The notes under the pieces were generated by a model. The model ran no database searches. It was not told where the DNA came from and saw only the letters and a program-made list of their open reading frames with translations. A program made the translations under genes and the position numbers. From a virus, in IMG/VR virus record IMGVR_UViG_3300049002_000011, positions 1 through 64,000 of that record: a stretch of DNA of 64,000 nucleotides; one strand, written 5' to 3'. Of this stretch, positions 9,357 to 63,194 are shown one piece after another; within the stretch, counting starts at the first letter, position 1; the number at the start of each line of letters is the position of its first letter.

Positions 9357-12300
9357 TTAAGCAAGTCGAAAGGCGACTTGGCGCAGACTGTCGTGCATCT
9401 TGCGTTTGATCTGCCCTTCGCTTCGTTTCACGTCGGCAGCATCGCGCGCATAGATCGGCATGCTAAAGTGAAAATGATTCTCGACTGGACCGCCTGAAGG
9501 TGAGAAAGAAGATCGTGACGCCGGGGCGGCAAAGGAGGGGCTGTCGATAATGCCGCCGTTCGCCCGGGCAAATAGGTTACTAACTGGGAAGAGCCATGAC
9601 AAGCCCTTATTCCCACGCTGGCCACCAAAGCCAAGCATCGACGCGGCGGGGCTCACAATCGCGCGGACCTTCTCACTCTTCACGGCTGCATAAACCGGTG
9701 AAAGCGCCTTAAAGAATCCGCCCCAACTGAATCCCGGCAGCTCGCCCGTTGCGTTGATGTATTCCAACGCCGATCGCTGCTTTGCCGTGGCGCGCGCGTT
9801 GACGATAAATTCGCCGCGAGACACGCGTGCGGTTGGTACGCCGTTCGGATCTACGCCCAGAATAGAGTCCGAGGTGGTCGTGCCTGGTCCGGAGATCATG
9901 CCTCCGTTTGCTAGACCACTGAGAGCCTTCCCTGCAGCACTACCAATGCCACCCTGCGAACCACTGCCACCACCAGTTAGACCGCCGATAGCACCGTTCA
10001 ACGCGCCGATCGCCATTGACGCAAACAGGCCTTTCCACGTAAACCCTCCGGTCGCGCCGAAGTTGGCCATGATGGAAAGCATTTGCGTCATCACACCAAC
10101 CATGCCCTGGCCAGCGGTGATGATCGCGGATGACGTCGACTTGCCGGTCCGATCGACAGCTCCGGCGTTCGACTCTCCGGCGGCATCGATCGCGTGAACA
10201 GCTTCGTGACCAGCTTCCGTAATCGCGAACGGACTGTTGTTTGTGAATGTACCGAGCAAGCTGCTCACGAGGTTCTGTGTGCCGCCGCCTGAGCCCGTTG
10301 CGTGATTGGAGAGAGCGCCGGCTTGACGCACGGCGGTAACGATTTGCGTCGTCGATCGATCGACGGCAGAAACGATCGGAGTCGATGTCTTGGTGGCTTG
10401 ATCGTCGACGCCGCCAAAACGTCCGAGTCCGAAAGCGCTCAGTATCGAATTAAAAATACCTTTGCCACTATTGCCAGCGTCGCTCGGCTGACTGCCCGAG
10501 GCTCCGGCGCCGCTTGCTTGCGGGATTTTGAACACGGTCTGCAACAACGACAGCACGCGTGACTTCACCAGGTCCAGGGCCATTTGTTCGAGCGTGTCGC
10601 GGAACGAATCGCCTAGCGACTTGAAGAAGCCCTTCCAACCTTCTTCCTTGTATTTGTCGAGCGCGTTTTTGAAGGTGCTTACGATCTTATCTGCCGCCTC
10701 GCGCAATCGTTCGCGCTGCTTCTCGTAGTAATCAGCGATGATGTCTTGGCGGCGTTGTGCTGAGCGGGTCTCTTCGGCCTCGATCTGATCGTTGATGCCC
10801 GCGATAATTTCGGCGCGTCGTTGTTCGTTCTTTTCAAACTTTTCAACATACTCGCGTTGGCGGCGCAAATCGTCGGTGCGACGTTGCGTAGCCATTCGCT
10901 CGATCGCGATCTCCAATTCGGCCTGTTTCTTCCAGACGACCTCCTTGCGGACACCCATCTGTTCGAGAAGGCGCAGGCGATCGCGCTCTGTCTCGGCCGT
11001 CATGTCGGCAATCGAATCGTAGATACCGCGCAACCGATCGCGGTGTTGCTGGAGGCGTTCGTATTCGCGTTTGTTCGCTTCGTCTGCGTCGGCGCCCGAC
11101 TGGCGCAGCAGGTTCGCCATACGTTGACGAATCTCCTGTAGTTGGGCCAACACGTCATTAAACTGCTTGGTGTCCGGAGTGAGACGTGACTGCTCGCCGA
11201 CAAGCGCTTGTTCCTGCATTTGCAGGATCTCGAGCTGCATTTGTGCGATGCGTTTCTGCGCGGCTCCAAAACTAACGACGCCCTGCTCCGCGAGACGGTT
11301 CCAGATAGCTTCGGTACCCGAAGCCGCTTCTTGCGCCAACGTTACGGTGGCTTGCTGGAATGAACGTTGAATCGACAATCGCTCGGAGGATTGGAAGCGC
11401 TCGATTTCCGTGACCGCGACTGAGTGTTTTTGCCAGGTGGCTTTTACTTTCTCTGAGAGCTGCGCTTCCGCAAGATCTCGCTGCCGGCCGCGCAGACCGG
11501 AGGCGGCCAGTGCAAACGCTTCCTGGTTGTTACGTTCATTCTCAGCCTTAAACAAATCGTCGCTGGCCTTACGCTTCGCCGTGACGTATTGCTCGAGTTG
11601 CTGAATGCCTTCGGAGTAGTAGTAGTCCGCGTCAGCGAGCAGCTTCTGATTGAGACGCTCAATGGTCTGGACCGCGACTTCCGCGATCTGCATTTCCACT
11701 TTGAACTTCTGTGCGGCCGCATTCTGTCCGGATTTCTTTGACCCTTCGCCAAAACCGGCGGGCAGTGAGGTTCTTGTGCTATTGGTCGCCGTTGCTTTCT
11801 CACTTTGATCGCTGTAGCCAGGCGCGCCCGAAACGTATTCGCCTTCGTCGTTGTAACGTTGCGGGTTCTGATTCGTCTGTTGAATATTTTGATTTGCTTC
11901 ATACGCCTGATTGCGCGCGCGCGCCTGCGCCACCCCAGCCGCGGCGTAAGCGGCGAGCACACTGGGAGACATCAACATAATTGCGATGCCGACAGCCGCC
12001 GCGACCGCCTCGATCGCACCGCCCTTAATTCCGGTCACCAGGCCCACAATCAGCTTCGCGCCCCAGATCAAACCGGCGCGCTGAAACTCGATGGCCTTAG
12101 CGACTAGAAAAGCGATAAGAGTAGTGAGGGCCTGTTGTGCTTTCAGCAGGATGGTGACAAAGCCGGCGAGAAAAGCGTCGACAATTCTGATCGCCATGTC
12201 CCAAACCGTTTGCCAGTCACCATTGATCATGGCGAGCACGGCCGTAATCACGCTGGAGATGACCCGGAGCGCCGTGCGAATCACCGTGGTGATGATTTCC

Positions 12301-14210
12301 CACGCCCCTTTCACCGCGATGACCACCGCTTTGCCGTGTGAATTCCAGAGCGCTTCGATCAATCCCAACACGTTCGCAGTTAAAGTTTTTAACTGCGGCA
12401 TGATGAGCCCGTAAGCGTCGCGTAGTTCATTCCACACTTGCAGCAGGAATCTCTTGATCGCATTCCACGCGGAGAGCGTCAGATCACGCACGCCGAGCCA
12501 GTTCGTTTTCCATATGGTGTAAACGGCGGTCGCGGTCGCGGTCGCCACAGCCGCAAGCTCGACGATGTAAATCGTGATCGCCGCTATCACGGCGCCGACA
12601 GGAATGAGAATCTCGGATAATGCTACAAAGCCACCCACCGCACCGGCCGCGGTCACCAGCGAAGCAATCGATCCGGCGAGTCCTAAAATTGCCGAGGCGA
12701 CGGTGCCAACGATCACGAGCACCGGACCGAGCGAGGCGACAAAGCCCAGCAATGCAACGATCCCGGCTTTCACCCCGCCGGGCATTTGTTTCCACGCATT
12801 TGTTGCCGTCTGAATCGCCGACACCAGGAACTCCGATAACGCTTTCACAACGGGCACGAGTATCGGCAGCAATTCCGCTCCGAGAGTTTCAAGAGCGTGA
12901 CGCGCAGTGTTTTTGAAGATCTCGAATTGAAAGTTGAAAGTTTTGTTGACCGTCTCGAACGCTCGATCGGCGGCTCCGGATACACCCGGGTCTTCTTTCG
13001 CTGACTGCACGGTAGGAAGTTGCCGTAACAGCGTAGCGAAACCTTTCTGCGATCGAATGTCTGGAAATAGCCCCTGGACCAGCTTCGACTTGTCTACTTC
13101 CGAGAGCGTGTCATATTTCTTTTTAACTTCATCGAGTATCTGAATGAAGGGCAGAAATTCGCCGCGCGCGTTGTGCGTCTCGATGCCCAGCTCTTTCAAA
13201 CCCTTCTGAGCTTCTTTGCCCGTGAACTGATTGAGGACCTGAGAGAGCTGCGTCATGTTCTCCGCGGCTGGTCCGGCTTCTTTGGTAGCGCCGACGACGA
13301 GCGCCATTAACGTGTCGAAGTCAACGCCCGCGTTCTGGGCCGCCTTCGAAACTCCAGCGAGCTCGCGCGAGAGCTCGCCACCAGTGATGATGCCGCGGTT
13401 AACAGTCTGGAAGAACCGATCTTGAATGTGATCGACTTCGGTGGCTTTCATCCCGTAGGCGTTCATCACGCCGAGGATTGCTGTACCGAACTCTAATGCT
13501 TCGACGCGCGCGGCCGTCGCGCCCTTACCGAACTTCTCAGTGAGATTCAGCGTCGCCGCCTGGCCGATATCGTCGAGCGAAGAAACGATGTTGTAGGACG
13601 CCTCCCCGAGTTGTTCGCTCGTCTGCGGGATGCGTGTTTGCAGCAGTGAGAGTTTGTCGAAGACCTGTGACGCGTCGAAATCCGGTCGTATGGTCCGGAT
13701 GAGCGAAACCTTCGACTCCAGATCACCGGCGAATTTGGCTGCGGCCGCTGAAGCGCCCGCGAGCGGCAAGGTCACACCTGCTGTAATCGCGGCACCGGCG
13801 CGCTGCGCATCACGCGCCATGCCTTCGAGACTACCGCGTAAGTTATCAACCGCGGCTCGATGTCGTTGCAGCGCACTGGCGGCTTGCGTCTGCGCGTTTC
13901 GGTTCGCGTTAACAGCCTGCGTGTTTTGGTTGGTGGCGCGAGTGCCCTGGGTGACCGCGTTGCTGTTTTGATTGACGGCGTTGGTGGTCTGCCGGGTGTT
14001 ATTACCCAGCAGGCTCATAGTTGTCGCCGCCTGATTATTGGCGTTGGCCCATGCTAAAAGCTTCTGTGTGTAAGACGCAACCTGGCCTTGACCGCTTTTG
14101 AGACCAGCAACGGTTTTCTCGTGCTTCTCATTTAAGCGGTCAAGGCCTTTTTCTGCGTCAGCGCCTTCGTAACCGGCACTAACTACCAGCGATGCTATTT
14201 CAGTTGCCAT
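9357..14210 (-). CDS. Tail tape measure protein
   Basis: 1617 residues. Residues about 160-420 carry the TP901-type tape-measure core (FAGDLESKVSLIRTI, ILGVMNAYGMKATE, GGELSRELAGVSKAAQNAGV, TQLSQVLNQF). Hydrophobic helices at about 480-560 and 640-760 fit membrane-insertion segments, and long coiled coils span about 850-1230. At roughly 0.15 nm per residue the tail would be about 240 nm long. The start lies inside the -1 frame end of the tail chaperone. Confidence 0.9.
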   Translation of the reverse strand: MATEIASLVVSAGYEGADAEKGLDRLNEKHEKTVAGLKSGQGQVASYTQKLLAWANANNQAATTMSLLGNNTRQTTNAVNQNSNAVTQGTRATNQNTQAVNANRNAQTQAASALQRHRAAVDNLRGSLEGMARDAQRAGAAITAGVTLPLAGASAAAAKFAGDLESKVSLIRTIRPDFDASQVFDKLSLLQTRIPQTSEQLGEASYNIVSSLDDIGQAATLNLTEKFGKGATAARVEALEFGTAILGVMNAYGMKATEVDHIQDRFFQTVNRGIITGGELSRELAGVSKAAQNAGVDFDTLMALVVGATKEAGPAAENMTQLSQVLNQFTGKEAQKGLKELGIETHNARGEFLPFIQILDEVKKKYDTLSEVDKSKLVQGLFPDIRSQKGFATLLRQLPTVQSAKEDPGVSGAADRAFETVNKTFNFQFEIFKNTARHALETLGAELLPILVPVVKALSEFLVSAIQTATNAWKQMPGGVKAGIVALLGFVASLGPVLVIVGTVASAILGLAGSIASLVTAAGAVGGFVALSEILIPVGAVIAAITIYIVELAAVATATATAVYTIWKTNWLGVRDLTLSAWNAIKRFLLQVWNELRDAYGLIMPQLKTLTANVLGLIEALWNSHGKAVVIAVKGAWEIITTVIRTALRVISSVITAVLAMINGDWQTVWDMAIRIVDAFLAGFVTILLKAQQALTTLIAFLVAKAIEFQRAGLIWGAKLIVGLVTGIKGGAIEAVAAAVGIAIMLMSPSVLAAYAAAGVAQARARNQAYEANQNIQQTNQNPQRYNDEGEYVSGAPGYSDQSEKATATNSTRTSLPAGFGEGSKKSGQNAAAQKFKVEMQIAEVAVQTIERLNQKLLADADYYYSEGIQQLEQYVTAKRKASDDLFKAENERNNQEAFALAASGLRGRQRDLAEAQLSEKVKATWQKHSVAVTEIERFQSSERLSIQRSFQQATVTLAQEAASGTEAIWNRLAEQGVVSFGAAQKRIAQMQLEILQMQEQALVGEQSRLTPDTKQFNDVLAQLQEIRQRMANLLRQSGADADEANKREYERLQQHRDRLRGIYDSIADMTAETERDRLRLLEQMGVRKEVVWKKQAELEIAIERMATQRRTDDLRRQREYVEKFEKNEQRRAEIIAGINDQIEAEETRSAQRRQDIIADYYEKQRERLREAADKIVSTFKNALDKYKEEGWKGFFKSLGDSFRDTLEQMALDLVKSRVLSLLQTVFKIPQASGAGASGSQPSDAGNSGKGIFNSILSAFGLGRFGGVDDQATKTSTPIVSAVDRSTTQIVTAVRQAGALSNHATGSGGGTQNLVSSLLGTFTNNSPFAITEAGHEAVHAIDAAGESNAGAVDRTGKSTSSAIITAGQGMVGVMTQMLSIMANFGATGGFTWKGLFASMAIGALNGAIGGLTGGGSGSQGGIGSAAGKALSGLANGGMISGPGTTTSDSILGVDPNGVPTARVSRGEFIVNARATAKQRSALEYINATGELPGFSWGGFFKALSPVYAAVKSEKVRAIVSPAASMLGFGGQRGNKGLSWLFPVSNLFARANGGIIDSPSFAAPASRSSFSPSGGPVENHFHFSMPIYARDAADVKRSEGQIKRKMHDSLRQVAFRLA

Positions 14211-14813
14211 TGCCTCTCAGTTCGCGACGCTGAGCAGCAAGGTCAGCGGCGATTTGCTCTGCATCGCTCTCGGCTGCTTCAGCGCAGAGAGCCCATTGCG
14301 TAATGCAAGTGGGAAGGTTGGCCAGATCCTTAATCGTGTAGGCGCCGCGGTAATACCGGACGGCGCGCACAATCGGATACCAGCTCGGGACAGAGCCCGC
14401 CTCGCCCCCGCTTCCTAAGAATTGGGCGAGGCTGGCTCGCTCGGAGGGTTTGCCATGTCACGCAGGTGCTCGGTGATTTGCTTGATGAAGGAAGCCATCA
14501 TGCCATACGAGAGATTGAGCCAGTTCTCGTATGTCGGGTCGAAACGCTCGCCTTTGAGCACAATCGGTTCGCCCTTCTCATCGACCCACGATTGGATCAA
14601 ATCCGAAAGCATTCTGGCGTTGTCGTCTTTGACTTCATCGGGAACGTCTGTTTCGTTCTCGCCGATGAGCTCCTCATTCGAGGTAGCCAGTGCGATCAGT
14701 TTCGCCTTGTAAGTCGGCGTCAACTTCTCAGTGAAAACGTTGCAGTTGAATTGGTAGTTTTTGTACTTCACCTCACACGATGAAGTCTCATTCAAAAGAT
14801 CACTTAGTTCCAT
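14200..14813 (-). CDS. Tail assembly chaperone, -1 frameshift product (gpGT type)
   Basis: Residues 1-123 are read in frame 0. After the slippery A_AAC_CCT at 14451-14445 the -1 frame is open for 81 more codons and stops at TGA 14202-14200, inside the tape measure start. The fusion is 204 residues. The added part reads WYPIVRAVRYYRGAYTIKDL and WALCAEAAESDAEQ, a helical sequence typical of the T half of gpGT chaperones. These proteins coat the tape measure and recruit tube subunits, and are absent from the virion. Confidence 0.85.
14415..14813 (-). CDS. Tail assembly chaperone, unshifted product (gpG type)
   Basis: 132 residues, acidic and helical, directly upstream of the tape measure as in lambda and most siphophages. 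It ends PPSEPASPNS when no frameshift occurs. The ratio of short to long form is normally fixed by the slip efficiency. Confidence 0.85.
   Translation of the reverse strand: MELSDLLNETSSCEVKYKNYQFNCNVFTEKLTPTYKAKLIALATSNEELIGENETDVPDEVKDDNARMLSDLIQSWVDEKGEPIVLKGERFDPTYENWLNLSYGMMASFIKQITEHLRDMANPPSEPASPNS
14445..14451 (-). other. Slippery heptamer A_AAC_CCT (tail chaperone)
   Basis: In frame 0 the codons are GCA AAC CCT at residues 121-123, giving X_XXY_YYZ with X=A, Y=C, Z=T. A -1 slip opens the downstream T frame. Confidence 0.8.
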
Positions 14814-14975: not shown

Positions 14976-15410
14976 TTACGCGAACGTCGAGCGCGTCGCG
15001 TCGCCGGTGATCTGCAATTCAGCGGTAAAGCTGGCGGCGCCGTTGACTGGAGATGTGCGGCTGAACTTCACGAGGTAGCACTTGCCGGTGTACTTCGTTT
15101 TCCCGGTAGACGTTCCTTCCGGACCATACTCGAAATCAAAACCTTCGTTGGTGGTCTGTGCGGTCGGTTCGCCCACGCCGAGAATCGCCGCCAGGTGCGC
15201 GTCGACGGTGGCGTCCCAGCGACCTTGCAGCGAAATTTTGTTGTCTTTGAAACCGACGATGAATTGCTTCGCCGATGCCTGAAAAGTGGTGACGTCCAAC
15301 AACTCAGCTTCTTGTGGAAAGTCGACGTTGTTGAGCTTCGTGCTGATATCAGTGAGCGTGTTCGCAAGATTGTCGATCTTGAACGACGTAACGCGGCCGT
15401 GTAGTGCCAT
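14976..15410 (-). CDS. Major tail tube protein (paralogue 1)
   Basis: 144 residues. It shares LLDVTTFQASAKQFIVGF and KISLQGRWDA with the adjacent 250-residue protein and ends in a beta-rich region. Position just before the chaperone genes and size fit a siphophage tail tube subunit. A good AAGGAGA site precedes the ATG. Confidence 0.7.
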   Translation of the reverse strand: MALHGRVTSFKIDNLANTLTDISTKLNNVDFPQEAELLDVTTFQASAKQFIVGFKDNKISLQGRWDATVDAHLAAILGVGEPTAQTTNEGFDFEYGPEGTSTGKTKYTGKCYLVKFSRTSPVNGAASFTAELQITGDATRSTFA

Positions 15411-15525: not shown

Positions 15526-16278
15526 TTAAGAGTTGTTGCGTGCGAGCGCAACGACGAAAGTGAAAGAAGGACCTGTGCCCGCAATGGTCCAACTGACACG
15601 CACGTAGCGCCGGATTGTGCCGGCGATCGAGATGCGCTGGTGCCCGACGGCCGTCAACTGTGTGAAGGTGCCGATCGTTGCCCAGCTCACATTGTCCGCG
15701 GAGTCTTCTACGATGACGTCGAGCGTATCGCCGGCGCTGGCTTCCGTGCAGTGAATCTGCACTTTCGCTCCAAACGCGGTCGCGGCGGCGCCGTCGTAGG
15801 CGGTGCCGGTGCCGGTCGCAGTGCGCGCGACCTGGTGTGCCAGCAAAATAGCTTGCTGGATCGGGCCGTCCGATTTGACTTCGGCCATCGCGCTCACGAG
15901 CCCGTTGAAAGGCGACTGGACCGAATACTTGGTTTCCTTGCCCGCCAGGATCTGAGTATTCAAACCGAAAGTGCCCAAACCCTCCTGGCCGATGAGGAAG
16001 TACTGATCGCTATCGACGCCGAGAATGGGTTGCAGCACGTCGTCGACGCGATTATCTAATCCGGCGGGATTGTTGGTCGCTTCAAATTGATCGGCGGACC
16101 ATACTCCGGAAAGCGAGACGCCGCCCTCGACAAAGTCGGGTATGAAAGTCTTTGCGGCTGCCGTAAACGTAGTGGCGTCCAGAACGGCCGCCTCGCCGTT
16201 GAGTTCCGCGTTTTTGAAATAGATCGAGAGGTCGTATTGATTGACGAGGACCTGAGTGCGTCTGCCGTGAATTGCCAT
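15526..16278 (-). CDS. Tail tube protein (paralogue 2) with extra C-terminal domain
   Basis: 250 residues. VLDATTFTAAAKTFIPDF and GVSLSGVWSA repeat the paralogue 1 signature. Residues about 140-250 add a beta domain (DTLDVIVEDSADNVSWATI, RRYVRVSWTIAG) resembling discoidin or Ig-like decoration domains. It may form part of the tube or decorate it. Shine-Dalgarno GGAGA is 11 bases upstream. Confidence 0.65.
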   Translation of the reverse strand: MAIHGRRTQVLVNQYDLSIYFKNAELNGEAAVLDATTFTAAAKTFIPDFVEGGVSLSGVWSADQFEATNNPAGLDNRVDDVLQPILGVDSDQYFLIGQEGLGTFGLNTQILAGKETKYSVQSPFNGLVSAMAEVKSDGPIQQAILLAHQVARTATGTGTAYDGAAATAFGAKVQIHCTEASAGDTLDVIVEDSADNVSWATIGTFTQLTAVGHQRISIAGTIRRYVRVSWTIAGTGPSFTFVVALARNNS

Positions 16279-16301: not shown

Positions 16302-16745
16302 TTAAGCGGAAGCGTGGACGTCGAAGTAAAAACCCGCCATGCCGGTATCGATGCTGCGTTGCGCGGAGTCCGGATCATCCTGCGTCGGGATGTCGTTGGT
16401 TGGTACGCAGGCAAGGGTGACGGCGCCGGTGATGACGAGCTGCGCGTTCAGCAATAAAGTCTTGCAGAGGTCGACGATCTGCGCGCATAGCTCGCGAGCA
16501 GTTTTTGTATCGGTTCTCTCTGCATGAGCGGTGAGCATGTAAATGTGTTTCTCGCTACTGACAGTTAGACCAAACGTGTAATCCGGTACTGACGCAACGT
16601 GCGTGAACTTGACGAACGGCAGCGGCGTCCCGTCTTCGGGCTGGCCATCGTGAGCATCACCAGGCGCCAGCGTCAGCAACGTTGCGCTGCCGTGCAGGGC
16701 CTGGTAAATGGCGGCGTTGGTCGCGTCGATGGAAACGAAGGGCAA
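16302..16745 (-). CDS. Tail terminator / DUF3168-like protein
   Basis: 147 residues with an N-terminal helix (AAIYQALHGSATLLTL), a short loop with PLPFVKF, then SSEKHIYMLTAHAERTDTKTARELC and a basic-acidic beta finish, the layout of DUF3168 tail-completion proteins. The start is a TTG with no clear ribosome site. Confidence 0.65.
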   Translation of the reverse strand: MPFVSIDATNAAIYQALHGSATLLTLAPGDAHDGQPEDGTPLPFVKFTHVASVPDYTFGLTVSSEKHIYMLTAHAERTDTKTARELCAQIVDLCKTLLLNAQLVITGAVTLACVPTNDIPTQDDPDSAQRSIDTGMAGFYFDVHASA

Positions 16746-41240: not shown

Positions 41241-41328
41241 CTGTCGTTTGCTCCTCGTCTTCGAACCAGTTCACGCCGATGAGCGCCGGATCCAGCCCGA
41301 AGCAATAACAATCGCCGTCCTGGCTCAT
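41062..41328 (-). CDS. Unknown small protein, overlapping frame
   Basis: 88 residues. SQDGDCYCFGLDPALIGVNW is compact, the rest is polar and basic. ATGA-coupled upstream. Much of it is overlapped by the next gene, so its C-terminal part may be under weak constraint. Confidence 0.5.
   Translation of the reverse strand: MSQDGDCYCFGLDPALIGVNWFEDEEQTTGARSKRNKRDAGPDDAPVSSAPGDLFPVRESTVQPVPQRRETNSTRRRATKNLSRSKRR
41067..41078 (-). promoter_or_regulatory. GGAGCAAACGAC translation-start element
   Basis: One base before the TTG at 41065. Confidence 0.8.
41243..41254 (-). promoter_or_regulatory. GGAGCAAACGAC translation-start element
   Basis: Two bases before the GTG at 41240, inside the coding part of the previous gene. 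Confidence 0.75.
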
Positions 41329-49168: not shown

Positions 49169-49180
49169 GTCGTTTGCTCC
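49169..49180 (-). promoter_or_regulatory. GGAGCAAACGAC translation-start element
   Basis: Two bases before the ATG at 49166. Confidence 0.8.
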
Positions 49181-49211
49181 TTTCTAACATAATGAATTGT
49201 GCCGTGAATCA

Positions 49212-49925: not shown

Positions 49926-50278
49926 CGCGGACCTCGTTTCGTCCACTGTTGCGGCGTCATGACTACGTTTCGGATCGGACACCAGACCGTGACGCAATTG
50001 ACCTTGACTATCCGAGAATCATTGCGAGCCTGGGGAAGTTGTCTGCACCAGGGGCAAACATCATTCGATAAGTCGATCACGCGCAGCAGAATCTGGTCAG
50101 CCTCAAAGCGGTAGGTCGTCTCTACGTTCCCCTCGTGCTCGAATCGCACACACACATCGACGTCGTCCTTCACGTCGATGTAACGGATGGACCTGGTTTC
50201 GATGTCTCCGAAAATCACAGAGTCGTCTTGGACCAACTCTGCCGCAGTGATTTGTTCAAAAAACATGCGTTGGCTCAT
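49922..50278 (-). CDS. Unknown protein with CPWC motif
   Basis: 118 residues; the ATG directly abuts GGAGCAAACG. NDVCPWCRQLP and VTVWCPIRN may bind metal. Mostly beta-like. Confidence 0.6.
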   Translation of the reverse strand: MSQRMFFEQITAAELVQDDSVIFGDIETRSIRYIDVKDDVDVCVRFEHEGNVETTYRFEADQILLRVIDLSNDVCPWCRQLPQARNDSRIVKVNCVTVWCPIRNVVMTPQQWTKRGPR

Positions 50279-52280: not shown

Positions 52281-52292
52281 GTCGTTTGCTCC
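52281..52292 (-). promoter_or_regulatory. GGAGCAAACGAC translation-start element
   Basis: Directly before the ATG at 52280. Confidence 0.8.
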
Positions 52293-52310
52293 TTTGTTTG
52301 TGGTCTAAGT

Positions 52311-55542: not shown

Positions 55543-55554
55543 GTCGTTTGCTCC
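55543..55554 (-). promoter_or_regulatory. GGAGCAAACGAC translation-start element
   Basis: Directly before the ATG at 55542. Confidence 0.8.
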
Positions 55555-55569
55555 GCATCCTCTTTTCTC

Positions 55570-56072: not shown

Positions 56073-56084
56073 GTCGTTTGCTCC
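56073..56084 (-). promoter_or_regulatory. GGAGCAAACGAC translation-start element
   Basis: Two bases before the ATG at 56070. Confidence 0.8.
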
Positions 56085-56255
56085 TTGATACAGATTGAAG
56101 AGACGCGCGTGTTCAGACGTTCGATTTCGATAGCGGATGATCGGGCGGTTGGCCGTGCGTGGCGATTGCGGCGGTTTGTTGCGGGAAATAGGTGAAGAGG
56201 ATCGGACATCTTTTGACGTTTCGCGTCTGCGTTTCGTCGTTTTTTGGACGCGTAA
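56085..56255 (-). other. Leader of the 56.2 kb promoter
   Basis: About 165 untranslated bases between the predicted start site near 56249 and the first accepted gene. Two overlapping basic frames of 72-73 codons cross it and were rejected. Confidence 0.4.
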
Positions 56256-57628: not shown

Positions 57629-57797
57629 TGCTGTCTACCTTACCAGATTCGTCAATGGGCTGTATCGCCAACACGTAAGGGCAATCGCCCGAATGCTGGT
57701 CCAGCTTGTAATTGCCCGGAGACGGCTGTGGGCCGCCGCAATTACAGTTGGCAGCCCACAGGTCGGTAGTTGCTCTTATCGCTGACGTGTCGATCAT
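57615..57797 (-). CDS. Small Cys-containing protein
   Basis: 60 residues; NCNCGGPQPSPGNY and SGDCPYVL suggest a metal site. ATGA-coupled to ParB. Confidence 0.55.
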   Translation of the reverse strand: MIDTSAIRATTDLWAANCNCGGPQPSPGNYKLDQHSGDCPYVLAIQPIDESGKVDSNVEV

Positions 57798-59590
57798 TTC
57801 CTTAATCGTTTGGCCTTCTTCGAAGCGGCCTTAGAGACGCCACGCACCGCGCGTTTAGCTGGCTTCTTGCTCTTGGTCGCCTTCTTAACTGGCAGCGTTG
57901 GCTTTGCTTCGTCGATGTAAATTGACGGCACCGCCGGACGCTTACCTTCTCGCACCTGTTCGAGATACGTTTGATGGATCGCCCGAGCCTTGCGCGCGCA
58001 GAGCTCGACGCGTGTTTCCGCGTCACGCAGCAGATAATCAATTCTCAACTCTTTGCTGATCGAAACGAATTCCGATTGATCCACGGTGCGAGCCATGTAC
58101 TCATTCCAACCAACCGGCACGAGTGTCAGCAACATGAGCAGTTGAGCCACCTCGTCGTCTCGCATCTTCCCGATCATCTTCAGAGCCTCGGACGTGTCGC
58201 GTTGGTAGCCAGTGAAGCTGTCGGGCAGTTCCTTGTCGTCACCGCGTCCTAACACTTCGTTGACGATCGACACGAGCTTTGTTGGCGTCCGGCCGAGCAG
58301 CTCAACTGCCACGGCGTTAAGCCAACGACGGTTCAAAGGCCATTTCACTTTCGCCAAAGCTTCTTTGAGAATTCGCTGGCGCGTTGTCTCTGCGACTCTG
58401 AGGTTGAAAAGCTCCTGTCGTCGTTCACGAAACTCTGCGGTGCTTTTGTTTTTCTTTGAGGGCGAGCTCGACGATGACGAAACAGAAACGGCGCCCATGT
58501 GGTCTTTGCACTTCTTCGACGCACAAACCATGATTGAGCGGCCAAACTTCTCGCCGTCTGTCGCGATCGCGGTCTTCGCGTGTTCGCATTTATGCTTACC
58601 CTCGACGATACGATAATCGCCGGTTGTCAGCGTTCCCGGAGGATGTTCTTTGGGGTCGCTTAGGTATTGGAGCGTCGACACGAACAGGACCTCGCTGCCC
58701 GTTTTTGTTCGCGCCTCGTCTGCCTGGCGCGTAATGTATTGTCGCTGCTTCTGCATGAAGCCAACGCGATTCGTGCAAAGGTTCTCGTCTTTCACGTCCG
58801 GAAACAGGGATGGAGTTGTGCCGGTGCGATATTGGCACGTCATGCACGCGCCTAAACCCAGCGTCTCGTCTTTCAGATCCCACGGCACTTTACTGAGGTC
58901 CATGACACTGAATCGATCGATCCATTCCTCGAGCTGACGCACGGAGCGCGGTCTGGTTTTATCGGGCTTGCTGCCCTCGGGCGTCCATCTCGACTCAAAA
59001 CAGCCCTTGTTCAACGCTTCCAATTGCGTTTCAGGTCCAATGCGCGCGATAGCCAGCGCGTGCCCTAATGTTATGTCGCCGGCGAGAAAAGCTTCTTTGA
59101 CCGGGTTGACTAAGTTGTTCAGAGACATACACCGCGTTACATAGTCGTGACTCTTGCCCACCCGCCGCGCGATTTCTGCGTCGGATAAGCGCGGATCAAC
59201 CTGGACCATGCGGCCGTAATAGTCACCCTCGTCGATCGGGTGAAGATTCTCGCGTTGCACGTTCTCGGTTATTTGCGCCAGGCTCGCTTCGACGTCATCC
59301 AGCTTCTTGATCATCGCCGGAATTTCTTTGCGACCAGCTTCCTGCGACGCGAGCCAACGTCGTTCACCGAAGACGAGCTCATACATGCCTTTGTACTTGG
59401 CTTCGTTCTCGATCGGGCGCACCAGGATCGGTTCGAGTACTCCGCGTTCTCTTACGCTCGCAACCAGTCCATCGAGTGGCCCACGATTCTTTTTGGAGCG
59501 CGCCTGTCGAAAGCGCGCGGGGATGATCGATTTTACGGGCAGTTGGACTATGTCCGTGTTACCCGACACTACGGGCTTTACCGTTGCCAT
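57794..59590 (-). CDS. Large ParB/RepB/Spo0J-family protein
   Basis: 598 residues. ParB N-domain with GERRWLA (75-81) in place of GERRxxA and box III ENVQRENLHP (109-118); a KorB-type HTH at about 136-156 (LSDAEIARRVGKSHDYVTRC). Residues about 250-370 hold Cys pairs (ACMTCQ, ENLC, KHKCEHA, MVCASKKC) seen in phage and plasmid ParB relatives. The C-terminus is Lys-rich. ParB proteins are CTP switches loading at parS; a parS match lies 11 kb away at 46576. No ParA is seen in the window. Confidence 0.85.
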   Translation of the reverse strand: MATVKPVVSGNTDIVQLPVKSIIPARFRQARSKKNRGPLDGLVASVRERGVLEPILVRPIENEAKYKGMYELVFGERRWLASQEAGRKEIPAMIKKLDDVEASLAQITENVQRENLHPIDEGDYYGRMVQVDPRLSDAEIARRVGKSHDYVTRCMSLNNLVNPVKEAFLAGDITLGHALAIARIGPETQLEALNKGCFESRWTPEGSKPDKTRPRSVRQLEEWIDRFSVMDLSKVPWDLKDETLGLGACMTCQYRTGTTPSLFPDVKDENLCTNRVGFMQKQRQYITRQADEARTKTGSEVLFVSTLQYLSDPKEHPPGTLTTGDYRIVEGKHKCEHAKTAIATDGEKFGRSIMVCASKKCKDHMGAVSVSSSSSSPSKKNKSTAEFRERRQELFNLRVAETTRQRILKEALAKVKWPLNRRWLNAVAVELLGRTPTKLVSIVNEVLGRGDDKELPDSFTGYQRDTSEALKMIGKMRDDEVAQLLMLLTLVPVGWNEYMARTVDQSEFVSISKELRIDYLLRDAETRVELCARKARAIHQTYLEQVREGKRPAVPSIYIDEAKPTLPVKKATKSKKPAKRAVRGVSKAASKKAKRLRK

Positions 59591-60184
59591 GATTTGTCGT
59601 TTGCTCCTTTTTGATTTTGATTAAGACACTCACCGCGTACTGATCGCGTTTCGTCTCTATGCGGCCGTCACGGTCGATTTCGACGTCGATGAAGGCGTAC
59701 TTCTTTTGCGCGTCGACCGCGACGACTTTGCCTCGGTAATTGCAGTAACGGACTTGGACGTCGTCGCCGGCTTTGATTTCGTCGTCTTCGTTCTGGTCCG
59801 TTCCTTCGTAGGGTTTGCGGGCTTCTCCGGAGTCGGCAGACGCTTCGCAAAACCTTCTTCTTTCGCGACCTGGTGAAACACGCTTTGAATTGCGTCTGAT
59901 ACTGATTGCCCGTTGGCGACCAGACTACAAAGTTTGGCGCGCAATCGTGAACGTTTTGCGGCCGCGCTGTGATGCTGTTCAGCCCACGAACCTTTCGGGA
60001 TAGCGGCTTTATCACTCTCTTTGGCGCGTTCTTCGAGCCAGTGTGCATGACTCGAGTAAGCGTCGGCTGCCGCCAGGCCTTTGTATTGAGGCAGATTCGG
60101 AACCGATTTCAGAAACACAAAAACATCGTCGAGCGTGTTCTTTGATTCTTCGTCTGTACCGTTTTTCTGATTTTTGGTTGTCAT
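59559..60184 (-). CDS. Early protein with SH3-like domain made by predicted -1 frameshift
   Basis: Residues 1-125 in frame 0, then a -1 slip at A_AAC_CCT (59816-59810), then 83 more codons to TAA 59561-59559. The -1 part reads AGDDVQVRYCNYRGKVVAV, DAQKKYAFIDVEIDRDGRIE, a well-formed SH3/KOW-like barrel, with no start codon of its own in that frame. Total 208 residues. The end overlaps the ParB start by 32 bases. The heptamer and its GCA AAC CCT context are the same as in the tail chaperone. Confidence 0.65.
59596..59607 (-). promoter_or_regulatory. GGAGCAAACGAC translation-start element
   Basis: Five bases before the ATG at 59590, and inside the -1 frame extension of the upstream gene. Confidence 0.8.
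59657..60184 (-). CDS. Unshifted form of the early frameshift gene
   Basis: 175 residues from the ATG set by GGAGCAAACGAC. The N-terminal 100 residues are helical (VFVFLKSVPNLPQYKGLAAA, HSAAAKRSRLRAKLCSLVAN). After the slip site the frame-0 tail is low-complexity Lys/Ser/Thr. Confidence 0.75.
   Translation of the reverse strand: MTTKNQKNGTDEESKNTLDDVFVFLKSVPNLPQYKGLAAADAYSSHAHWLEERAKESDKAAIPKGSWAEQHHSAAAKRSRLRAKLCSLVANGQSVSDAIQSVFHQVAKEEGFAKRLPTPEKPANPTKERTRTKTTKSKPATTSKSVTAITEAKSSRSTRKRSTPSSTSKSTVTAA
59810..59816 (-). other. Slippery heptamer A_AAC_CCT (early gene)
   Basis: Frame-0 codons GCA AAC CCT, residues 123-125. A -1 slip gives AAA CCC then TAC GAA, entering the SH3-like frame. Confidence 0.65.
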
Positions 60185-60188
60185 TGTC

Positions 60189-60200
60189 GTCGTTTGCTCC
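60189..60200 (-). promoter_or_regulatory. GGAGCAAACGAC translation-start element
   Basis: Four bases (GACA) before the ATG at 60184; the sequence from the motif through ATGACAAC is the same as at 62621. Confidence 0.8.
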
Positions 60201-60223
60201 TTCTAGCTTTTTGCCGGATGGTC

Positions 60224-60979
60224 CTATCCGGATTTTTTGGTTGCTTGTTTCAGCATCTCCCGGACCTCGTCTGCCGAAGCCCGATCTGATTCTGCGGGCG
60301 CCTTTAATTCTTGGCGTTGTTGGAAACGCGCTTGTTCAGAGCGCATCTTGGCGGCAAAGTACTCACGAATGTCTTCGTCCCAATCTCCGTTTTTGGATTT
60401 GAAGATCCACCCCTTGCCGAGTTTGGGAGTTTGAGCACTTGCGTATTCAACTCTTTGCTCCCTGGAAAACTCGGAGAGACACACACGCTCTGTTGTTTGT
60501 ATGTGTGTGTGTGTGTTTTTAAAACTAATATTAGGACTCGCGCTTCCGGAGTTAAATTTCTTAACTGCGGCATGGTTTAAATTTTTTACTTCGAGTGCAG
60601 TTAAATTCTTTGACTCCGAATCGTGCAGGTCCTGAACGTTGAGCGGCAATGCGCGCTGTTTTTCGGGCTCTGTTTTGGAGGGAAGGACTCTGAGGTTCTG
60701 AGTCTTCAGTAAGCGGTAGCGGTAGGCCTCACGTGACGCGCCGCGGCGTCTCCCGATACACCCGCGACCCACCAAATTATCGAGCGCGGTTATCACTGTC
60801 GGACGCGTCATGCCGGTCAGTTCCATCCACTCCTCGATTTTCAATTGGACTTCTTCACGCTGCCAGCCAGCGGTTTGATCAATCAGTGCAACTACGCATT
60901 TGGTTTCGGCTCCACCTAGGACGGGAAGCCAAGTACGGGCAAAGACATCGGGCATCTTTGAAAACCCGTTGTCTCTCAT
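60224..60979 (-). CDS. Replication initiator (O-like, winged helix)
   Basis: 251 residues from the ATG at 60979 with GAGGTG upstream. FARTWLPVLGGAETKCVVAL, DQTAGWQREEVQLKIEEWME and LTGMTRPTVITALDNLVGRG match the Rep_O/DnaD-like winged helix of phage initiators. The middle is a low-complexity linker; a GT microsatellite encodes NTHTHI. Phage origins often lie inside such genes. Confidence 0.65.
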   Translation of the reverse strand: MRDNGFSKMPDVFARTWLPVLGGAETKCVVALIDQTAGWQREEVQLKIEEWMELTGMTRPTVITALDNLVGRGCIGRRRGASREAYRYRLLKTQNLRVLPSKTEPEKQRALPLNVQDLHDSESKNLTALEVKNLNHAAVKKFNSGSASPNISFKNTHTHIQTTERVCLSEFSREQRVEYASAQTPKLGKGWIFKSKNGDWDEDIREYFAAKMRSEQARFQQRQELKAPAESDRASADEVREMLKQATKKSG

Positions 60980-61024
60980 GCACGACACCTCGAAGGAGAT
61001 GATCGGGGAAACTTAGTGGTCGCT

Positions 61025-62600: not shown

Positions 62601-62620
62601 TCGATCTTTAAACCTTGGAA

Positions 62621-62632
62621 GGAGCAAACGAC
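62621..62632 (+). promoter_or_regulatory. GGAGCAAACGAC translation-start element
   Basis: Four bases before the ATG at 62637. Confidence 0.8.
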
Positions 62633-63153: not shown

Positions 63154-63182
63154 GAGCGCGCCGTTCGACTTACGGCGCGCTC
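63154..63182 (+). promoter_or_regulatory. 10-bp hairpin abutting a start element
   Basis: GAGCGCGCCG-N9-CGGCGCGCTC ends one base before GGAGCAAACGAC. It may control access to the ribosome site or mark an mRNA end. Confidence 0.6.
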
Positions 63183-63194
63183 GGAGCAAACGAC
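63183..63194 (+). promoter_or_regulatory. GGAGCAAACGAC translation-start element
   Basis: Two bases before the TTG at 63197. Confidence 0.75.

What the first reader, a model, noticed from the sequence alone, without database searches (positions are those of the whole stretch)
59559..60184. Hidden -1 frameshift in an early gene appends an SH3-like domain
Frame 0 ends in a low-complexity Lys/Ser/Thr tail, while the -1 frame from the A_AAC_CCT heptamer at 59816-59810 is open for 83 codons and encodes a barrel-like sequence (DDVQVRYCNYRGKVVAVDAQ) with no start codon of its own. The heptamer is in the correct phase and is the same, with the same GCA codon before it, as in the tail chaperone. Programmed frameshifting outside tail genes is rare in phages.
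Basis: partly seen in the sequence, partly recalled or inferred. Interest (0 to 1): 0.85.

Follow-up and report, generated by a model that had tools for sequence, protein, structure and literature searches.

The report
Candidate hidden frameshift in phage replication gene
A small gene next to the replication genes of an uncultured tailed phage carries the same in-phase ribosome "slip" sequence as the phage's tail chaperone gene, and just past it the codon signal moves into another reading frame, so the phage probably makes two versions of this protein with different ends, although no relative could be found to prove it.

Summary
The sequence facts are correct. A_AAC_CCT (59816-59810, minus) is in phase with the 175-codon frame-0 ORF. 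The -1 frame is open for 83 codons and has no ATG/GTG/TTG. GCA_AAC_CCT also sits in phase in the tail chaperone. Codon content alone places the frame switch within 0.2 nats of the heptamer (52.4 against 14.6 nats for no switch). A_AAC_CCT is in phase nowhere else in 10,825 codons of other genes. The upstream GGAG meets a published stimulator rule, but 12% of random positions do too; the downstream fold is ordinary. The -1 ORF also lacks the stereotyped start leader that the early gene and ParB both carry.

Three cautions. (1) No homologue was found in any collection searched, so the decisive conservation test could not be made. (2) The frame-0 Lys/Arg/Ser/Thr tail (76%) is richer than expected as a by-product of the -1 frame, so frame 0 may be the selected frame, or both may be. 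(3) The SH3-like domain is unproven: no significant profile or fold match, and a low-confidence four-strand model.

Best reading: a -1 programmed frameshift giving two C-termini (basic tail, or acidic linker plus beta domain), about 0.6. This is a new variant of a known mechanism, in an unusual place.

The parts
59657..60184 (-). Frame-0 ORF (175 aa): predicted helical N-terminal region (about residues 1-124) plus basic K/R/S/T-rich tail
   Evidence: ORF list; helices in a single-sequence model, pLDDT 53; codon LLR +18.1 over 122 codons before the heptamer
59810..59816 (-). Slippery heptamer A_AAC_CCT in phase with frame 0
   Evidence: sequence; within 0.2 nats of the best frame-switch point
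59825..59828 (-). [quoted passage not shown]
   Evidence: meets the Sharma et al. 2014 criterion (PMC4066793); 12% of random in-phase positions also do
59559..59810 (-). -1 frame extension, 83 codons plus stop: acidic linker then predicted beta-rich region; its last codons overlap the ParB leader and start
   Evidence: open frame; codon LLR +24.5 over 50 codons, above the 95th percentile of the phage's own genes
59740..59809 (-). Predicted downstream hairpin, helix starting about 8 nt after the heptamer, -16.5 kcal/mol
   Evidence: fold, z -1.1; not stronger than random gene positions
60189..60201 (-). Start leader AGGAGCAAACGAC of the frame-0 gene
   Evidence: exact copy, ATG 4 nt downstream
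59596..59608 (-). Start leader AGGAGCAAACGAC of the ParB-like gene, inside the end of the -1 frame
   Evidence: exact copy, ATG 5 nt downstream
57794..59590 (-). Downstream neighbour: ParB-like protein, 598 aa
   Evidence: Pfam ParB_N 4.3e-21; PHROG ParB-like 7e-31
60224..60988 (-). Upstream neighbour: replication initiation O-like protein, 254 aa
   Evidence: PHROG phrog_678, E 8e-15
14415..14813 (-). Comparison: tail assembly chaperone (G-like) ORF, 132 aa, just upstream of the tape measure gene (9357-14210)
   Evidence: position and frames; tape measure by PHROGs; no PHROG hit of its own
14445..14451 (-). Comparison: same heptamer A_AAC_CCT in phase, followed by a strong hairpin (-35.3 kcal/mol, z -2.4)

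Best explanation
The early gene at 60184 is decoded in two ways. Most ribosomes read frame 0 and make a 175-aa protein with a basic Lys/Arg/Ser/Thr-rich C-terminal tail (net about +11 over its last 50 residues). A fraction slip back one base on A_AAC_CCT (Asn and Pro tRNAs re-pairing on AAA CCC) and make a protein of about 208 aa that shares the first 125 residues but ends in an acidic linker and a beta-rich, possibly SH3- or Tudor-like segment. Because the gene lies between a replication O-like initiator and a ParB-like protein, the two isoforms are most simply a DNA-binding accessory factor and a protein-interacting version of it, in a ratio set by slippage. Shown here: the heptamer and its phase, the codon-usage switch, the shared heptamer with the tail chaperone, and no start codon or leader for the -1 ORF. 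Inferred: that slippage occurs, its efficiency, the fold, and the function.
For: Codon content: -1 frame +24.5 nats over 50 codons, frame-0 tail -3.1; best switch point at the heptamer, 52.4 against 14.6 nats. Given the frame-0 residues and the phage's codon usage, a -1 signal this strong arises in 0.04% of resamplings. A_AAC_CCT is in phase at both frame transitions and at 0 of 10,825 codons in other genes. In a window-wide scan of in-phase heptamers leading into coding-like -1 frames it scores second of seven, beside the tail chaperone site; of the rest, I checked that two lead into ORFs with their own start. Tail chaperone precedent in the same genome, with a strong hairpin. GGAG at 9 nt meets published stimulator rules. 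In E. coli, A_AAC_CCU is not among the three heptamers that failed to shift with a strong stimulator (PMC4066793). The -1 ORF lacks the AGGAGCAAACGAC leader present at the starts of this gene and of ParB. Hydrophobic alternation in the -1 peptide exceeds order-shuffled controls, P 0.02.
Against: No homologue, so no conservation test. With the tail's own codon usage kept, the -1 signal is reproduced by permuting synonyms (mean 20.0, P 0.15) and in 3.4% of order shuffles. The downstream fold is no stronger than at random gene positions. CCN A-site codons are weak shifters in E. coli. Most known phage cases are in structural genes.
Confidence: 0.6

Rival explanations
1. Only frame 0 is used. The gene ends in a genuine low-complexity basic tail, and the -1 ORF is a by-product: T/S/K codons ending in G read as D/V/E codons ending in C in the -1 frame, which look coding-like.
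For: Tail K/R/S/T 76% against 53+/-5% expected from the -1 residues (0 of 5000), and above the maximum (68%) of 961 +1-frame windows of real genes. Codon choice in frame 0 is ordinary (42nd percentile) while in the -1 frame it is unusually good (99.9th). With a fitted composition, frame 0 has the higher likelihood (-159.6 against -184.7 before penalty). Permuting frame-0 synonyms keeps a high -1 score.
Against: Under the phage's codon usage the -1 score has P 4e-4. The in-phase heptamer at the switch, identical to the tail chaperone site, would be coincidence (below 0.2%). No other scored gene has such a tail (next highest 48%, ParB, whose -1 frame has stops and scores -13.4). The -1 frame stays open and coding-like (+6.0 over 16 codons) beyond the frame-0 stop.
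Confidence: 0.22
2. A recent one-base insertion (biological, or an assembly error) split a gene that was once continuous; the frame-0 tail is an accident.
For: The two coding-like parts would join if the frame were continuous; the record is an uncultured virus.
Against: The break falls on an in-phase canonical heptamer shared with the tail chaperone. There is no long homopolymer to slip or misread (longest runs at the site are three bases). Frame 0 stays open 51 codons beyond it, with an unusual composition.
Confidence: 0.14
3. The -1 ORF is a separate gene with its own, non-standard start.
For: The -1 frame is open from about 59921, 37 codons upstream of the heptamer.
Against: No ATG/GTG/TTG; only ATC at 59906, 59900 and 59777, without a Shine-Dalgarno. 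The stretch upstream of the heptamer is strongly non-coding in this frame. It has no start leader, whereas the early gene and ParB do.
Confidence: 0.04

Closest known systems
Lambda-type tail chaperone G/GT -1 frameshifting
   Same: In-phase canonical heptamer and -1 extension giving two products with a common N-terminus; this phage's own chaperone uses the same heptamer
   Different: Not beside the tape measure gene; a 51-codon frame-0 tail follows the site instead of about 11 codons; no strong hairpin
Ig-like domain extensions of phage structural proteins by -1 or +1 frameshifting (phages T3, A2, A118; reviewed in PMC5009743)
   Same: A frameshift adds a C-terminal beta domain to a fraction of a phage protein
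   Different: Those are capsid or tail proteins; this gene is in the replication region, and the added segment has no identified family
Bacterial dnaX -1 frameshifting
   Same: Two isoforms of a replication-associated protein; upstream Shine-Dalgarno-like stimulator (PMC3711429)
   Different: In dnaX (established knowledge) the shifted product is the shorter one and the heptamer is A_AAA_AAG; here the shifted product is longer and the heptamer is A_AAC_CCT
Lactobacillus phage A2 cro -1 frameshifting in E. coli (PMC5009743)
   Same: A frameshift in a non-structural phage gene
   Different: The A2 product is only 12 aa shorter and the shift seems irrelevant in its own host; here a whole new C-terminus is appended

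Membership tests
Programmed -1 ribosomal frameshifting | X_XXY_YYZ heptamer in phase with the zero frame inside the overlap | tested here: met
   59816-59810
Programmed -1 ribosomal frameshifting | -1 ORF that is coding-like and has no start of its own | tested here: met
   LLR +24.5 per 50 codons, no start; part of the signal could come from frame 0
Programmed -1 ribosomal frameshifting | Upstream Shine-Dalgarno-like stimulator 6-17 nt from the site (optional) | tested here: met
   GGAG at 9 nt; 12% of random positions also qualify
Programmed -1 ribosomal frameshifting | Downstream stimulatory structure | tested here: inconclusive
   Hairpin -16.5 kcal/mol at about 8 nt, but z -1.1 and 64% of random positions fold as well
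Programmed -1 ribosomal frameshifting | Slip site and -1 frame conserved among homologues | tested here: inconclusive
   No homologue found
Programmed -1 ribosomal frameshifting | Fusion product made in vivo at a reproducible ratio | not testable with these tools
   needs reporter assay or proteomics
SH3-like domain | Significant match to an SH3/Tudor/KOW family profile | tested here: not met
   Best Pfam E 0.03 and PHROG E 0.11, neither named as an SH3 family; order-shuffled controls reach similar E-values
SH3-like domain | Confident small beta-barrel fold | tested here: inconclusive
   Four strands, pLDDT 50; PDB matches include several SH3 domains but none with E below 0.5
Tail assembly chaperone G/GT | Gene directly upstream of the tape measure gene | tested here: not met
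   The early gene lies between O-like and ParB-like genes; the chaperone is a different gene at 14415-14813

The most novel reading that the evidence does not exclude
A dual-coded early phage gene in which both overlapping frames are under selection: one heptamer lets the replication operon make two isoforms with oppositely charged C-termini (basic DNA-binding-like tail, or acidic linker plus beta domain) from one message, using the same slip signal as the tail chaperone.
Probability: 0.35. Interest if true: 0.7.

Novelty: new variant of a known kind. Interest (0 to 1): 0.52.

Why it matters
Almost all established phage frameshifts serve tail or capsid assembly. A frameshift that sets the ratio of two isoforms in a replication operon would extend this control to early phage functions. 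It would also show that gene callers, which report only the frame-0 ORF, miss a domain here. The case is cheap to test with one reporter construct.

Tried and rejected
Homologue searches, all empty or chance: early ORF and -1 peptide in viral contigs (L001 is a short coincidence in another frame), phages, plasmids, genome contigs, 50 records sharing the capsid gene (L091 is an integrase frame), 45 host genomes, 754 genomes of two classes (no positive control, so weak). ParB, O-like and portal proteins also gave no close kin. 80 ParB-like loci gave no related upstream gene; the L228 match is antisense with a stop. A degenerate search for RGKVVAVD found a 57-aa stand-alone phage protein in L276, but its flanks align no better than shuffles. 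The PHROG phrog_2737 hit to the frame-0 ORF (E 0.001) falls to 0.087 without the K/R/S/T tail. Tail chaperone relatives in phages: none. Stereotypy of 'GCA before the heptamer' adds little: GCAAAC occurs 76 times in the window, partly because it lies inside the start leader.

Full report
What is there. The window belongs to a 70,994-base IMG/VR virus record, a siphovirus-like tailed phage: P22-type coat protein, portal, terminase, tail terminator, two major tail proteins and a tape measure protein. The early region on the minus strand reads: helix-turn-helix gene (61367-61047), O-like replication gene (60988-60224), the gene in question (60184-59657), ParB-like gene (59590-57794). A_AAC_CCT at 59816-59810 is in phase with frame 0, and the -1 frame runs 83 codons to 59559 with no standard start.

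Is it more than chance? I scored codons against the phage's other genes. Frame 0 scores as coding before the heptamer (+18.1 over 122 codons). After it the -1 frame scores +24.5 over 50 codons, above the 95th percentile of real genes, and frame 0 about -3. Scanning all possible switch points, the maximum (52.58) and the heptamer position (52.40) are indistinguishable; no switch gives 14.6. In-phase canonical heptamers occur at 0.21% per codon, so about 0.04 are expected in the 18-codon interval; this particular heptamer is in phase nowhere else in 10,825 codons of other genes. The other in-phase copy is in the tail chaperone gene, where a -1 extension of about 81 residues past the site reaches into the tape measure start and a strong hairpin follows. 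This is the best internal evidence that the signal is used.

Stimulators. [quoted passage not shown] (PMC4066793), but 12% of random positions qualify. The downstream hairpin (-16.5 kcal/mol) is ordinary for this genome. In E. coli, CCN codons shift less than AAN or UUN, but A_AAC_CCU is not among the three heptamers that failed with a strong stimulator.

Not a separate gene. The -1 ORF has no usable start and its upstream part is non-coding. A stereotyped leader AGGAGCAAACGAC precedes many genes of this phage (17 sites with up to two mismatches, 2.5 expected; usually 0-5 nt before the start), including this gene and ParB, but not the -1 ORF.

The main caution: which frame drives which? The frame-0 tail is 76% K/R/S/T. 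If only the -1 protein were selected, 53+/-5% would be expected (0 of 5000 reach 76%), and no +1 frame of 961 gene windows exceeds 68%. Conversely, if only frame 0 were selected with the phage's codon usage, a -1 score this high has P 4e-4. Codon choice is ordinary in frame 0 and unusually good in the -1 frame. If the tail's own codon usage is kept, the -1 score is largely reproduced, and 3.4% of order shuffles reach it. Both frames therefore look constrained under the genome-wide model, yet a real low-complexity tail with a by-product -1 frame cannot be excluded. The K/R/S/T statistic was chosen after seeing the tail, which weakens its significance.

The domain. No profile match is significant, and order-shuffled controls give similar E-values. 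A single-sequence model shows four strands with pLDDT about 50-66 in the core; the best PDB match has E 0.5, with several SH3 domains among the insignificant matches. Alternation of hydrophobic residues is above controls (P 0.02). 'SH3-like' is a plausible guess, not a result.

Relatives. None was found for the early protein, the -1 peptide, the O-like protein, the portal or the tail chaperone at the sensitivities available, apart from distant O-like and ParB-like family members. The coat protein has relatives up to 67% identity, so the structural genes have kin while the early region is an orphan here.

Verdict. A programmed -1 frameshift with two alternative C-termini is the most likely explanation (0.6). 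Frame-0-only use (0.22) and an indel or artefact (0.14) remain serious. It works like other phage frameshifts that append a C-terminal segment, but the gene location is unusual.

Noticed in passing
window 60189-60201, 59596-59608, 56073-56085, 55543-55555, 52281-52293, 49169-49181, 41243-41255 (-); 288-300, 62620-62632, 63182-63194 (+) and others: A stereotyped leader (A/C/G)GGAGCAAACGAC lies 0-5 nt before the start codon of many genes on both strands, outside the head and tail module (17 sites with up to 2 mismatches, 2.5 expected, 0 of 100 shuffles reach 17). It resembles in kind the start-associated sequences reported for cluster K mycobacteriophages (PMC3203893, found by search, not read) and could help call starts, e.g. 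embedded starts near 50278 (-) and 61768 (+).
   Followed up: partly
window 14200-14813 (-): Apparent -1 frameshift of the tail assembly chaperone: A_AAC_CCT at 14451-14445, extension to 14200, strong hairpin downstream; the protein has no relative in the phage collection.
   Followed up: partly
window 16302-16745 and 15526-16278 (-): G_GGT_TTT at 16335, in phase near the end of the tail terminator gene, leads into the -1 frame that continues as the major tail protein; that gene has its own ATG, so this is probably chance.
   Followed up: partly
window 15526-16278 and 14976-15410 (-): Two different proteins both match major tail protein families, so the phage may carry two tail tube-type proteins.
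   Followed up: no
window 57794-59590 (-); L228 3935-5680: The ParB-like protein has a Cys-containing 'CxxC...RTG' segment, a poly-Ser stretch and a long C-terminal region shared with a phage ParB in L228, an architecture longer than ParB_N plus HTH alone.
   Followed up: no
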